From a virus: 21,610 nucleotides of DNA. The translations under genes and the position numbers were made by a program. The DNA lies in IMG/VR virus record IMGVR_UViG_3300044960_000349, positions 1 to 21,610 of that record; one strand, written 5' to 3'. Within the stretch, counting starts at the first letter, position 1. Each line of letters opens with the position of its first letter. Below the pieces are notes generated by a model that saw only the letters and a program-made list of their open reading frames with translations, made no database searches and was not told the origin of the DNA. This document shows positions 3,634 to 7,298 of this stretch, piece by piece.

Positions 3634-3675
3634 AACTACTCAGTACGTTGAGGAAGATTGCTCACTTCGCGCCAC

Positions 3676-3733
3676 GTCTGGGCCTGGCCACAGGCGTTCC
3701 GGATCGCATCTGATTGACCGGCCAGGCCCAGAC
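3676..3733 (-). repeat. 30-nt-loop hairpin, copy A
   Basis: Perfect 14-bp inverted repeat: GTCTGGGCCTGGCC at 3676-3689 and its complement at 3720-3733, with a loop of 30 nt (3690-3719). On the + strand the loop starts with A, has GGatcGCA at positions 12-19 and ends with C. The stem is closed by GCC/GGC. It lies downstream (in transcription) of the IS110-like gene, 4 nt from copy B, and before the replication initiator. Confidence 0.85.
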
Positions 3734-3737
3734 ATCG

Positions 3738-3797
3738 CGGACGGACCACGCCACGAGGTCCTTCGATCTCACCAGGTCCGTCGGCGTGGTCCGTCCG
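3738..3797 (-). repeat. 30-nt-loop hairpin, copy B
   Basis: Perfect 15-bp inverted repeat (CGGACGGACCACGCC at 3738-3752, complement at 3783-3797) around a 30-nt loop (3753-3782). On the + strand the loop begins with A, carries tCGatctCA at positions 11-19 and ends with C. It begins 1 nt after the stop codon of the IS110-like gene in the direction of transcription, so it could act in that gene's 3' end. There is no T-tract after it, so a plain intrinsic terminator is unlikely. Confidence 0.85.
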
Positions 3798-3798
3798 T

Positions 3799-4536
3799 TC
3801 ATGCCGCGGCCACCGCGTCGACAGTGCGCGCCTTCCAGGCGATGAGCAGGTCACCGAGGAAGGCCTTTGCCACGATGACGCGACCGCGGCGGTGGATGCG
3901 GAGGGCCGAGCCAGCGGATGTATCGCTCTCACGAACGGATTCGGCTCGGCTCATCCGCTCCCGATAGGCGTCGTAGATGCCGCGGTACGGCTGGATGCGG
4001 TGCATGATCAGCTGGTCCGCGATGCCCTTCGGCATGAGGAGCGCCGTCTTCAGGTCTGGCCGGTAGGTGGCCTGGTGACCGCGGCGGCGATGCAGAAGCC
4101 GGCCGTCGGGGCCGGGAATGAGACCGGCGTAGTGCCAGAGCGATCGAACGCCGGTTCCGGGGCGAACCGGCCCGAGCGGTGCACCGCAGGGCATTCCATG
4201 GTCGCAGACGTCGTCGCCATCGCCCCAGATCTCGGCAGGACACGCCTCGCCGTCGTACCGTGAGCTGACGTGATGACCATTCCGACAGAGCCGTCCCGGA
4301 AAGCGCCATGGGTCGCGGATGATCGCGATTACCCTGGCGACCTGGACGCCGCGGATCGGCAGCCAGTCGTAGAGCGGATGGGCTCGCAGCTCCCGGTCGA
4401 TGTACCGCTCCATGTTGTCCTCGATCTTCCGAAGTTCGGCCTCCACCTGGACGAGACCGCGCTGGCCCGCCGAGATCCGCGCCTGCTCGACGTCCCGGTG
4501 GGACGCGACCAGCAGTAGAAGCGGCGACGCGTTCAT
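3799..4536 (-). CDS. Stand-alone IS110-type C-terminal (transposase_20-like) domain protein
   Basis: The 245-residue protein starts at ATG 4536, overlapping the upstream stop (ATGA). Residues 25-50 form a charged helix. Residues 59-80 (LPIRGVQVARVIAII, then DPWRF) match the helix-hairpin-helix opening of the IS110 C-terminal domain. LWHYAGLIPG at 133-142, a basic RRRGHQATYRPDLKTALL segment, PYRGIYDAYRERM and the closing HRRGRVIVAKAFLGDLLIAW also fit that family. A Cys/His insert (C84, H88, C99, C111, H113, C117) may bind zinc. The N-terminal DEDD/RuvC-like catalytic half of real IS110 recombinases is absent, and the GL-x-P region has no serine, so it is probably not an active transposase. It may be a nucleic-acid-binding phage protein. 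Hairpins flank its two-gene cassette. Confidence 0.6.
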   Translation of the reverse strand: MNASPLLLLVASHRDVEQARISAGQRGLVQVEAELRKIEDNMERYIDRELRAHPLYDWLPIRGVQVARVIAIIRDPWRFPGRLCRNGHHVSSRYDGEACPAEIWGDGDDVCDHGMPCGAPLGPVRPGTGVRSLWHYAGLIPGPDGRLLHRRRGHQATYRPDLKTALLMPKGIADQLIMHRIQPYRGIYDAYRERMSRAESVRESDTSAGSALRIHRRGRVIVAKAFLGDLLIAWKARTVDAVAAA

Positions 4537-5075
4537 GCCTGCGCCTCCACGACCACGTCGTTCAGCTCGCGCTTCGCATCGTCCGGCAGCTCCTCGGTCA
4601 GATCGACGCCGTGCTTGCCGAGGAGCGCGAGCGCCGTATCGCACATGGTTACCCGGCACGTCCAGCCGGCGACCTGCGCGACGGACTTCGACCGCAGCGC
4701 TCTCCAATCCTCCGGTGTGAAGTACGCGAGCGGCTTCTGCCGGCCGTCGGCGCCTTCGTAGAACGTGGTGTAGAGCCGGGTGTACGAACTCGGGGCGGTC
4801 CCTCGGCGGTTGACCCAGGCGTTGCGTCCGCTCCGGACCTTCGGCTCCTCCTCCTCCGTCTGCTCCGGCAGACCACGCGAGCGGTGCAGGGTATCGGAGA
4901 CGACCTTCGCCGCTCCGATCCTCGCCAGCTCCTCGAGGCTCGCCGGATCGAGCGACCGCCTGGCGAACCAATCCCGGACCGCCTGATCGATCGAGACGTG
5001 CGCCTCGACGATTTCCTCCATCACCTCGGCGACCATCTCATCGATCGTCGCCAGCTTCGTTGCTACGATTGCCAT
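4533..5075 (-). CDS. Hypothetical phage protein, first gene of hairpin-flanked cassette (180 aa)
   Basis: ATG at 5075 follows a strong Shine-Dalgarno site (AAAGGAG, 5082-5088, 6 nt spacing), so translation starts anew here after the non-coding hairpin region. The N-terminal ~60 residues are helical and acidic (IDEMVAEVMEEIVEAHVS). A polyacidic linker (QTEEEEP) follows, then a domain with SYTRLYTTFYEGADGRQKPL and AYFTPEDWRALRSKSVAQVA, and a C-terminal LALLGKHGVDLTEELP helix pair. No family was recognised and no catalytic motif is evident. It is translationally coupled to the IS110-like gene, so the two may work together. Confidence 0.75.
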   Translation of the reverse strand: MAIVATKLATIDEMVAEVMEEIVEAHVSIDQAVRDWFARRSLDPASLEELARIGAAKVVSDTLHRSRGLPEQTEEEEPKVRSGRNAWVNRRGTAPSSYTRLYTTFYEGADGRQKPLAYFTPEDWRALRSKSVAQVAGWTCRVTMCDTALALLGKHGVDLTEELPDDAKRELNDVVVEAQA

Positions 5076-5095
5076 CGTTCGCTCCTTTCATGTTC

Positions 5096-5153
5096 CCGGC
5101 GGCCGAGCCACTGCGAATATCGCTCGCAATCGCGCAATCGGCTCGGCCGCCGG
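5096..5153 (-). repeat. 30-nt-loop hairpin, copy 1
   Basis: Perfect 14-bp inverted repeat (CCGGCGGCCGAGCC at 5096-5109, complement at 5140-5153) with a 30-nt loop. On the + strand the loop starts with A, carries tCGctcGCA at positions 11-19 and ends with C; GCC/GGC closes it. It is 7 nt upstream of the Shine-Dalgarno site of the cassette's first gene, so folding could influence its translation. Confidence 0.87.
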
Positions 5154-5181
5154 CTGTCGTGGGCTCCTGGAGCCCGCATCT

Positions 5182-5238
5182 GGCGGGGGACGGCCATTTG
5201 ACGGCTCGGACACACTCGTTCGCCCGGCCGTCCCCGCC
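5182..5238 (-). repeat. 30-nt-loop hairpin, copy 2
   Basis: GGCGGGGGACGGCC (5182-5195) faces GGCCGTCCCCGCC (5226-5238): 13 bp with one bulged base in the G-run. The loop is 30 nt, begins with A, holds tCGgacaCA at positions 11-19 and ends with C on the + strand. GCC/GGC closes it as in the other copies. Confidence 0.83.
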
Positions 5239-5305
5239 GAACCACGCCACGCCCTCGGCGCGGTCGTCAATCATCTACCCGCGATGTGCTGCCCTCCTTT
5301 CCGGG

Positions 5306-5359
5306 CGAGCCCGCGCCACATAGGCTCTCGATCGCACGGCTGCATCCGACGCGGGCTCG
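5306..5359 (-). repeat. 30-nt-loop hairpin, copy 3
   Basis: CGAGCCCGCGCC (5306-5317) faces GACGCGGGCTCG (5348-5359). There are 11 Watson-Crick pairs plus one C/A mismatch on the + strand, which is a G-U pair in the leftward transcript. The 30-nt loop begins with A, holds tCGatcGCA at positions 11-19 and ends with C. Confidence 0.83.
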
Positions 5360-5364
5360 ATGGG

Positions 5365-5418
5365 CCGGATCGCGCCATCCTCGACCTCGATTGCACCGTA
5401 TCCGTCGGCGCGATCCGG
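5365..5418 (-). repeat. 30-nt-loop hairpin, copy 4
   Basis: Perfect 12-bp inverted repeat: CCGGATCGCGCC at 5365-5376 and its complement at 5407-5418, with a 30-nt loop. The loop begins with A, holds tCGattGCA at positions 11-19 and ends with C. It lies 5 nt from copy 3. Confidence 0.87.
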
Positions 5419-5434
5419 CGCAGAGGCACACTGC

Positions 5435-5502
5435 CTCCGGAGAGGGCCGGGCCATCCAGACTTCCGACCGCAACCCTGACGTCGGCCCGACCCTCTCCGG
5501 AG
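5435..5502 (-). repeat. 30-nt-loop hairpin, copy 5 (longest stem)
   Basis: A 19-bp stem spans 5435-5453 and 5484-5502 around a 30-nt loop. Its one mismatch (C at 5447, A at 5490) is a G-U pair in the leftward transcript. The loop begins with A, holds cCGaccGCA at positions 11-19 and ends with C. It starts 4 nt after the RecT-like stop codon in transcription order. Confidence 0.87.
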
Positions 5503-5506
5503 CGGC

Positions 5507-6388
5507 TCACGCCTCACCTCCCGCTCGCTCTTCGGCCACGGCCCACACATGGGCGCGCTGGACGTCGGACAGCTCGGAGAGCTTCGCGACCCCCGGGTAG
5601 AGCTCCTTGGCCACGGCAGCCACGACGGACCGCGACACCTGGCCCGTCCCGAGGCGGCGCAGGAACTCCTGCTGGGTCATCCCGTCGCAGCGGTCGCAGA
5701 CCCGCCGGTCCCCGACCTGGCGGTGGTAGCGCTGGTGAGCGCGGTATTGCTCGGGGTCGGCAAAGCAGGCCGGCTCCGCGGCTTCGGCGTCCTCCTCCGC
5801 AGGTTCGCTCTCCTCCGCTGGGGGCTGGATCGCTACGGAGTTCTCCGCCGCCGGGGCCTCGATCTCGGCGACCCGCGCCGCGATCTGCTCGGCGAGCGAT
5901 GGGCGCTCGGGCTCGGCTCCGGGGATCGACTCGATCTCCGTCTCGTCGGTCCAGCCGAGGCCGGCGAGCGACAGCGTGAGCCGGCGCTTCGCCTTCGTCT
6001 CCGCCCGCATCATGGCGTTCGCGAGCGCCTCGCCTCGGAGCCCGGCGATCGAGACGGCGCCGGTGGCGACGTCCTCGCGACCGCTCGCATCCCGGCCGGC
6101 GGCGACGACGACGTAGAGGTCGTCGATCTTCCGCGGCTCCAACGAGGTGATCGTGATCCCGCGGACCCGGCGGAGCTGGTCGGCTGCGTCCCGCTTCGCG
6201 TAGAGCGTCAGCTTGCCGTTCAAGCGAATGTACTCGAACGGCCGAGTCAGCGGGTTGAGGCCCAGCGACTCGCAGACGCGCTGGTAGTAGATGACCCGTT
6301 GCTCCTCGGTCAGCCTGGACAGGTCGCCCTCGACGAGGGCGCGCTCCAGGGCGCCGGCGGCAGACGTCGGCACGATCTCAGTCGCCAT
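5507..6388 (-). CDS. RecT-like single-strand annealing protein with zinc-finger tail
   Basis: The 293-residue protein starts at ATG 6388, 8 nt after GAGGAGG; GTG 6397 is an alternative. Residues 15-160 contain the annealing-protein core as found in a common phage family: LSRLTEEQRVIYYQRVCESL, GLNPLTRPFEYIRLNGKLTL, YAKRDAADQLRR, AVSIAGLRGEALANAMMRAE and TKAKRRLTLSLAGLGWTDE. An acidic linker (~165-205) is followed by C208-x9-H218-x3-H222-x8-C231-x2-C234, a likely zinc finger, and a helical C terminus. It lies directly after the YqaJ exonuclease, the classic two-component phage recombination pair: the exonuclease resects and this protein anneals single strands. Membership in RecT proper versus a related annealase family is uncertain. 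Confidence 0.82.
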   Translation of the reverse strand: MATEIVPTSAAGALERALVEGDLSRLTEEQRVIYYQRVCESLGLNPLTRPFEYIRLNGKLTLYAKRDAADQLRRVRGITITSLEPRKIDDLYVVVAAGRDASGREDVATGAVSIAGLRGEALANAMMRAETKAKRRLTLSLAGLGWTDETEIESIPGAEPERPSLAEQIAARVAEIEAPAAENSVAIQPPAEESEPAEEDAEAAEPACFADPEQYRAHQRYHRQVGDRRVCDRCDGMTQQEFLRRLGTGQVSRSVVAAVAKELYPGVAKLSELSDVQRAHVWAVAEERAGGEA

Positions 6389-7298
6389 CTTCGTCACCTC
6401 CTCGAACGATGAAGCGCCGAACCCCGGGCTTCGTCGTCGTGTGCTGCCGGATCAGCTCGGCGCGCTCCTGCTCGGGCAGCGACCGCAGGAGCGCCGTGGC
6501 GACGGCTCGCCAGTCGGTGATCTCGGAATCGCGGACGTTCCGCCAGGTGACGACGAAGCCCTCGCCGACGAGACGGCTCGCCGGCCCCATCCGGCCCTTG
6601 ATCGTCGTCTCCAGCCGGTCCGCGCTCTCTTTGAGCCGCTCGATCTGCGAGCGGACATCGAGGAGAGCGCGGACCGCGTCGGCGAGGTCACGATCGGCAA
6701 CGAGCTCGATGTCCTCGCCGCGGGGATACGCCCTGGCGATCGACTCCCGCGTCTCGGCGAACGGCCCCCCGGCCTCGAGACGTCGACGGAAGTCCTCGGC
6801 GATGCGGACGAGGGCGCGCCATTGGTCCTCGTCGTGCTCGACGTCGTAGATCGACAGGTCCCGGCCGACGAGGGCGGCGACCGAGGCGCGTCGCAGGCCC
6901 GTGACGCCGAGCTGCCAGCGGACCTGGCACTCGTACTCCTGCGGCAGACCGTCGCGCCACCGGCTCGGCGTGGCGGACCACTTGCACTCGACGAGGACGT
7001 CGCCGGCCCGGTAGTCGGGCGTGGCGCCGGCCCAGGGAAGCTCCGGATGCGTGACGAGCTCACCCCAGCGTTCGACCGGCTCGCCCGTCCGCTCCGACCA
7101 GAGCGCCGCAATGAGCGGCTCGAGCGTCGAGCCGACCCGCATCGGGATCGTCGGTTCGGGCTCGGCCCCTTCGAGCTTCGCCCGAGCCACGTCGCCCTCG
7201 GAGCGCCAAGGGTCGATGCCGAGGATCGCCGGCAAGTCGGTGGCCGTGATCAAGCGCCGGCGCGCCTCGAGCCACTCCGGAGTGCCAGCCGTGATCAT
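6378..7298 (-). CDS. YqaJ/lambda-exonuclease-type recombinase nuclease
   Basis: The 306-residue protein begins at ATG 7298 with AGGAGG 4-5 nt upstream, and the start also overlaps the upstream stop. It has the YqaJ layout: EWLEARRRLITATDLPAILG at the N terminus, GSTLEPLIAALW (E60), GATPDY (D95), LVECKWS (E104-x-K106) and a downstream EYECQVRWQL helix with Q125. These make the two-metal PDDEXK site of 5'-3' exonucleases that process double-stranded ends. The C-terminal half is a coiled-coil-rich region ending in a GVRRFIVRG strand. Its last 11 nt overlap the annealing-protein gene. Confidence 0.9.
   Translation of the reverse strand: MITAGTPEWLEARRRLITATDLPAILGIDPWRSEGDVARAKLEGAEPEPTIPMRVGSTLEPLIAALWSERTGEPVERWGELVTHPELPWAGATPDYRAGDVLVECKWSATPSRWRDGLPQEYECQVRWQLGVTGLRRASVAALVGRDLSIYDVEHDEDQWRALVRIAEDFRRRLEAGGPFAETRESIARAYPRGEDIELVADRDLADAVRALLDVRSQIERLKESADRLETTIKGRMGPASRLVGEGFVVTWRNVRDSEITDWRAVATALLRSLPEQERAELIRQHTTTKPGVRRFIVRGGDEDGD

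What the first reader, a model, noticed from the sequence alone, without database searches (positions are those of the whole stretch)
3676..5502. A family of seven hairpins, all with 30-nt loops and a conserved loop centre, flanking a two-gene cassette
Seen directly: inverted repeats at 3676-3733, 3738-3797, 5096-5153, 5182-5238, 5306-5359, 5365-5418 and 5435-5502. Stems of 12-19 bp differ in sequence between copies, but each loop is exactly 30 nt. On the + strand all seven loops start with A and end with C, have G at position 13 and CA at 18-19 (five of seven have tCG at 11-13; five have GCA at 17-19), and sit inside GCC/GGC closing pairs (copy 3: GCC/GAC). Variable paired stems plus fixed loop length and conserved loop bases is the mark of a structured element under selection. 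The two substitutions that break Watson-Crick pairing (copies 3 and 5) are both G-U pairs in the leftward transcript, favouring an RNA made with the operon. A DNA-hairpin role (single-strand origin, primase or recombinase site) is the alternative. I know no described element with this form.
Basis: partly seen in the sequence, partly recalled or inferred. Interest (0 to 1): 0.95.

Follow-up and report, generated by a model that had tools for sequence, protein, structure and literature searches.

The report
Phage guide-RNA hairpin array (TIGR-Tas)
The hairpins are a battery of eight small guide RNAs, each carrying two 9-letter address tags, beside the phage gene for the protein that uses them (a TIGR-Tas system, a recently described RNA-guided system), together with a second conserved partner gene that the main text of the founding paper does not mention.

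Summary
They are the stem-loop type of TIGR array (Tandem Interspaced Guide RNA; Faure et al. 2025, PMC12045711). On the minus (gene) strand each loop reads box C (CGA), 9-nt spacer A, box D (UG), 4 nt, box C, 9-nt spacer B, box D. The gene at 3799-4536 encodes TasA (Nop domain, no nuclease): its predicted structure matches TIGR-TasR 9MTY (Foldseek probability 1.00) and a family profile hits 9MTY at 1.7e-36. New, as far as I can check: the upstream gene (4533-5075) belongs to an uncharacterised family (phrog_4604) sitting just upstream of tasA in 64 of 68 related IMG/VR loci. The same arrays occur in cultured Mycobacterium and Gordonia phages, where stems persist and spacers turn over. Most likely mechanism: tigRNAs guide TasA to bind (not cut) foreign DNA. 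Targets were sought and not found; no self-targets were seen in the complete Morrissey genome, 94% of Corvo, or this fragment.

The parts
5435..5502 (-). tigRNA stem-loop 1 (19-bp stem with one G-U; loop 5454-5483; spacers CGTCAGGGT / AAGTCTGGA)
5364..5419 (-). tigRNA stem-loop 2 (13 bp; loop 5377-5406; spacers CGGATACGG / GGTCGAGGA)
5306..5359 (-). tigRNA stem-loop 3 (12 bp with one G-U; loop 5318-5347; spacers ATGCAGCCG / GAGCCTATG)
5182..5238 (-). tigRNA stem-loop 4 (10 bp plus bulge and 3 bp; loop 5196-5225; spacers GCGAACGAG / GCCGTCAAA)
5096..5153 (-). tigRNA stem-loop 5 (14 bp; loop 5110-5139; spacers TTGCGCGAT / TATTCGCAG)
4533..5075 (-). partner gene, 180 aa, phrog_4604-like family, function unknown; overlaps the tasA start by 4 nt
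   Evidence: 72-member family profile E=1.2e-6 among 12,735 ORFs, hhalign 88.8%; earlier smaller profiles were not significant
3799..4536 (-). tasA: 245-aa Nop-domain TIGR-associated protein without nuclease domain, with a Cys/His-rich insertion
   Evidence: PDB 9mty 6.2e-6 alone, 1.7e-36 as family profile; fold match to 9mty probability 1.00
3738..3797 (-). tigRNA stem-loop 7 (15 bp; loop 3753-3782; spacers CGGACCTGG / AGGACCTCG)
3670..3739 (-). tigRNA stem-loop 8 (14 bp core 3676-3733, longer with G-U and mismatch; loop 3690-3719; spacers TCAATCAGA / GAACGCCTG)

Best explanation
The locus is a phage-borne TIGR-Tas system of the stem-loop type: a partner gene (4533-5075), tasA (3799-4536) and eight tigRNA stem-loops before, inside and after the genes, all read leftward. 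The transcript is processed between stem-loops; each hairpin is held by a TasA dimer through paired box C (CGA) and box D (UG) motifs at the loop base and loop centre, exposing two 9-nt spacers that pair with opposite strands of an ~18-bp DNA target (top strand = spacer A + reverse complement of spacer B). Having no nuclease, TasA would bind and bend its target and block transcription or replication of foreign DNA (rival phages, plasmids) rather than cut it. Shown here: array anatomy, likely strand, protein family, partner gene, spread, spacer turnover in relatives. Inferred from Faure et al.: processing, dimer, tandem pairing, target geometry. Not shown: the biological target and the role of the partner protein.
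For: TasA: PDB 9mty and TasH sequence hits, best structural matches 9mty, TasH, then IS110. Array: 8 units of identical 30-nt design, stems covary, motif-only search. Published stem-loop TIGR arrays have this anatomy (PMC12045711). Strand: G-U excess on the gene strand, 3:1 in the window, 155:68 in relatives; same 9-nt register as TasR; a related TasA (34% identical) carries a classical dual-repeat TIGR array with edge TGCGAGCCA against the window's TGCGATCGA. Same arrays beside tasA in cultured actinophages and IMG/VR. Spacers replaced on fixed stems.
Against: No RNA data; no target found; box C is CGA rather than the published CCA; the window protein is divergent (about 30-37% to relatives) and close relatives of this very locus were not found.
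Confidence: 0.9

Rival explanations
1. The hairpins are TIGR guides but the plus strand is the RNA, antisense to tasA, with boxes (G/C)CA and UCG and 10-nt spacers ending in a fixed U.
For: The reverse complement of a two-fold symmetric unit is also symmetric; CG and CCA boxes occur in relatives.
Against: Relatives' arrays are on the tasA strand; G-U pairs favour the gene strand; the 9-nt register then departs from TasR; it would need antisense transcription through tasA.
Confidence: 0.06
2. It is a TIGR-TasA system used to regulate the phage's own or its host's genes, or to help integration, rather than to exclude rival DNA.
For: No nuclease; Faure et al. raise regulation and integrase assistance; relatives lie near repressor, excise or recombination genes.
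Against: No self-targets in Morrissey (complete), Corvo (94%) or the window; fast spacer turnover at fixed scaffolds is odd for fixed self or host sites. Host genomes were not tested.
Confidence: 0.3
3. DNA hairpins: single-strand origin, primase or recombinase (attC-like) sites.
For: Stable stems; single strands of phage DNA can fold; recombination genes nearby.
Against: Conserved letters are box C/D at two-fold positions and the rest of the loop is random across 327 distinct loops; G-U bias; constant link to a Nop RNA-binding protein; several units inside genes.
Confidence: 0.03
4. Remnant of an IS110 transposon with bridge-RNA pieces.
For: Tnp20/Nop domain is shared with IS110; the related PHROG is called transposase.
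Against: No DEDD domain or Pfam transposase hit in the 245-aa protein; eight separate two-spacer units; closer to TasR and TasH than to IS110.
Confidence: 0.01

Closest known systems
TIGR-TasA with stem-loop array (Peromyscus gut contig; Faure et al. 2025, PMC12045711, Fig. 7)
   Same: Nuclease-free Nop protein; array of hairpins with variable palindromic stems; [quoted passage not shown] units in sub-arrays around the gene
   Different: Here loops are uniformly 30 nt with a conserved 9-nt loop repeat, box C is CGA, units also lie inside coding sequence, and a conserved partner gene precedes tasA (not described in the main text)
Dual-repeat TIGR array (Microcystis phage Mvi-JY20, found here; TaTIGR and FpTIGR of Faure et al.)
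   Same: 9-nt spacers, box C/D register, homologous Tas protein (34% for Mvi-JY20)
   Different: Edge repeats are short and constant there; here replaced by stems differing in each unit; no partner gene beside Mvi-JY20 tas
Stem-loop TasA loci of actinophages (Corvo, BPBiebs31, Rich, Morrissey, Spooky, LonelyBoi)
   Same: 30-31-nt loops, partner gene upstream of tasA, units overlapping genes
   Different: Box C CCA and box D CG there; TasA only about 30-35% identical to the window's; no Cys/His insertion at that place
IS110 bridge RNA and box C/D snoRNP
   Same: Nop-type RNA-binding domain; split guides flanked by box C/D-like motifs
   Different: No DEDD recombinase or methyltransferase partner; many separate guides; no element ends

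Membership tests
TIGR-Tas, stem-loop type | Nop-domain Tas protein encoded beside the array | tested here: met
[quoted passage not shown]
   eight units, 9+9 nt; the box letters (CGA/UG) differ slightly from TasR CCA/UG
TIGR-Tas, stem-loop type | Variable palindromic stems in place of edge repeats | tested here: met
TIGR-Tas, stem-loop type | Spacers vary while scaffold persists | tested here: met
   between units in the window and between phages in relatives; no close relative of the window itself
TIGR-Tas, stem-loop type | Array transcribed and processed into Tas-bound hairpin RNAs | not testable with these tools
   needs small-RNA sequencing or pull-down
TIGR-Tas, stem-loop type | RNA-guided binding of both strands of a target | tested here: inconclusive
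   no target found in limited searches
TIGR-Tas, dual-repeat type | Constant alternating edge and loop repeats | tested here: not met
   stems differ in every unit
IS110 transposon with bridge RNA | DEDD recombinase domain | tested here: not met
   245 aa, helices of a Nop domain only
phrog_4604 (partner protein) | Profile match and position directly upstream of tasA | tested here: met
   own 72-member family profile E=1.2e-6; the direct PHROGs scan gave no hit to phrog_4604 itself, while 12 of 12 relatives hit it

The most novel reading that the evidence does not exclude
Stem-loop TIGR systems of tailed phages are two-protein machines: the phrog_4604 protein is a dedicated partner of TasA (guide maturation, guide exchange or the effector step), and the cassette is a rapidly retargeted, non-cutting RNA-guided exclusion system used between phages.
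Probability: 0.35. Interest if true: 0.88.

Novelty: new variant of a known kind. Interest (0 to 1): 0.62.

Why it matters
What nuclease-free TasA systems do, what they target and how their spacers change were left open by the founding paper, partly because most loci are metagenomic. This work ties the window to cultured phages of M. smegmatis and Gordonia terrae (for example Corvo, BPBiebs31, Rich, Morrissey, Spooky) with the same architecture, shows spacer replacement on fixed hairpin scaffolds between closely related phages, and adds a second conserved gene to test. Those questions become directly testable in standard laboratory hosts.

Tried and rejected
Single-sequence searches with the window TasA and partner in IMG/VR, GTDB, INPHARED and PLSDB gave nothing usable; weak tblastn hits (Microcystis phage E 0.05, Gordonia phage E 5) opened the family. 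A loop-motif scan of IMG/VR returned contigs without arrays or Tas. Rfam: four matches, all far below threshold. An IMG/VR scan with an alignment including the divergent window protein found no column block conserved enough. Target searches: own fragment, Morrissey, Corvo, Bxb1, TM4 and 1.96 Mb of loci against mispaired-spacer or shuffled controls, no excess; a single near-match in L096 (1 mismatch, gap 2) was judged chance; BLAST of four Corvo targets against all phages found none, but sensitivity is low; one Parafrankia target in its own genome, none. Partner protein: no Pfam family, no solved fold. DNA-hairpin, attC and IS110 readings rejected as listed under rivals.

Full report
Observation. 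The seven inverted repeats exist with exactly 30-nt loops, and an eighth (loop 3913-3942) lies inside the gene at 3799-4536. Chance is excluded: with >=10 perfect bp, five hairpins share loop length 30, while the maximum at any loop length was 1-2 in 199 of 200 shuffles and 3 once. A motif-only search recovers seven of the eight with stems of 6-15 bp, and one hit elsewhere with 1 bp. Stem columns covary strongly, and every unit folds better than shuffled sequence (z -2.7 to -6.8).

Identity. The 245-aa product of 3799-4536 has no Pfam hit but matches the TIGR-TasR structure 9MTY at 6.2e-6 and TasH weakly. An alignment with phage homologues matches 9MTY at 1.7e-36 and TasH at 2.5e-20. The AlphaFold model (pLDDT 79; residues 80-127 poorly modelled) has 9MTY as best structural match (probability 1.00, E 1.4e-6), then TasH, then IS110 recombinases. 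Faure et al. (PMC12045711) describe TIGR arrays and, in two clades, stem-loop arrays whose edge repeats are replaced by variable palindromes, with two 8-12-nt spacers flanked by boxes C and D; their tested example has a nuclease-free TasA. The window fits each sequence-level feature.

Anatomy. On the minus strand each loop is G-A/G, N9, UG, N4, C-G-A (with a few departures), N9, U, closed by a C-G pair: box C CGA, spacer A, box D UG, box C, spacer B, box D. The G13-C18 pair in loop numbering on that strand is invariant and lies where Faure et al. describe a base pair between the UG and CCA motifs; that placement is my reading. Strand choice rests on the 9-nt register shared with TasR, on G-U pairs (3 to 1 in the window; 155 to 68 in relatives), and on Microcystis phage Mvi-JY20, whose TasA is 34% identical to the window's and whose dual-repeat edge TGCGAGCCA resembles the window's loop repeat TGCGATCGA.

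Relatives. tblastn with Morrissey gp42 finds Tas homologues in 88 phage records, 76 of them Mycobacterium phages. Gordonia phages Morrissey, Spooky, LonelyBoi and BENtherdunthat, Mycobacterium phages Rich and prophiFSAT01-1, cluster A-type mycobacteriophages, and four actinobacterial contigs (Parafrankia, Nocardia and two MAGs) carry hairpin arrays with loops of mostly 30-31 nt around tasA. An IMG/VR scan gave 68 more loci. Of 424 units found by a motif-based scan over 85 loci, 365 have exactly 30-nt loops; 47 lie inside the tasA profile match. That scan demands the box letters, so only loop length, spacer randomness and G-U bias are independent results. In Fromanvirus mycobacteriophages the stems are shared, but three unit positions show 9, 8 and 12 different loops in 16, 16 and 15 phages, sometimes with one spacer kept and the other replaced.

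Partner gene. The gene directly upstream of tasA is homologous in all 12 actinobacterial loci first inspected; all 12 match phrog_4604, function unknown, and 64 of 68 IMG/VR loci have it (not de-duplicated). A profile of 72 members finds the window's 180-aa protein at E 1.2e-6 among 12,735 ORFs, the next unrelated ORF at 0.05; with the first, smaller profile it was not significant (E 1; hhalign 21.6%). The family model (pLDDT 92) matches no solved fold. It was absent beside the two dual-repeat-type arrays inspected (Mvi-JY20; the L226-L228 trio). Faure et al. state that TasA lacks clear associations with other proteins and is only occasionally next to ParB; I could not read their supplements, so the novelty of the partner is provisional.

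Context. The cassette lies between a gene adjacent to a YqaJ exonuclease gene (PF09588) and a replication-initiation-like gene (phrog_2149). Twenty-one phages with a homologue of the 5507-6397 gene show no Tas, partner or hairpins in the stretches held, so the cassette is an optional module. The window is a 21.6-kb virus record with no further contigs.

Function. No target was found. Best matches in the phages' own DNA equal the controls; 381 unit pairs gave no exact target in 1.96 Mb and no excess in Morrissey, Corvo, Bxb1 and TM4. These are small samples. With no nuclease domain, TasA probably binds and bends DNA and blocks it; the turnover of guides suggests moving targets such as other phages. 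That last step is inference.

Verdict. Already-described kind of system (TIGR-Tas, stem-loop array), in a variant with a conserved second gene, slightly different box letters and guides overlapping genes.

Noticed in passing
L155 3548-5944 (Nocardia suismassiliense): The tasA gene appears to be interrupted by an intein-like insertion (WAYC / VPRGERVSTPSG...VVHN / CGFHV) in the conserved ELWAYCG motif.
   Followed up: no
L147, L148, L160 (Gordonia phages Spooky, LonelyBoi, BENtherdunthat), 5' part of the annotated tasA ORF: Five to seven guide hairpins at 57-60-nt spacing lie within the 5' part of the annotated tasA ORF, so the guides double as coding sequence (or the annotated start is too far upstream).
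   Followed up: partly
L143 4388-4740 (Microcystis phage Mvi-JY20): Unannotated classical dual-repeat TIGR array (edge TGCGAGCCA, loop CGAAACCCA, 9-nt spacers) downstream of a tas gene annotated hypothetical, ending in a terminator-like hairpin.
   Followed up: partly
L226-L228 2684-2946: Another repeat array, built on GCAGCCAA with a period of about 32, upstream of a distant Tas homologue in three IMG/VR contigs; no partner gene there.
   Followed up: partly
L231 (Bxb1) 42422-43126 against L230 (Corvo) 44673-46506: Between the exonuclease and repressor genes Corvo carries the tasA-partner cassette, while Bxb1 has other small genes (gp63-gp65), next to a gene annotated superinfection immunity protein (gp66): a possible module exchange.
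   Followed up: no
window 4156-4299: The window's TasA has a Cys/His-rich insertion (about residues 80-127: CRNGHH...C...CDHGMPC) where the other Tas proteins have none; possibly zinc-binding, poorly modelled.
   Followed up: no
window 5507-6397: Conserved 296-aa gene next to the YqaJ exonuclease, without Pfam or PHROG hit but with 21 IMG/VR homologues; by position a candidate single-strand annealing protein.
   Followed up: partly
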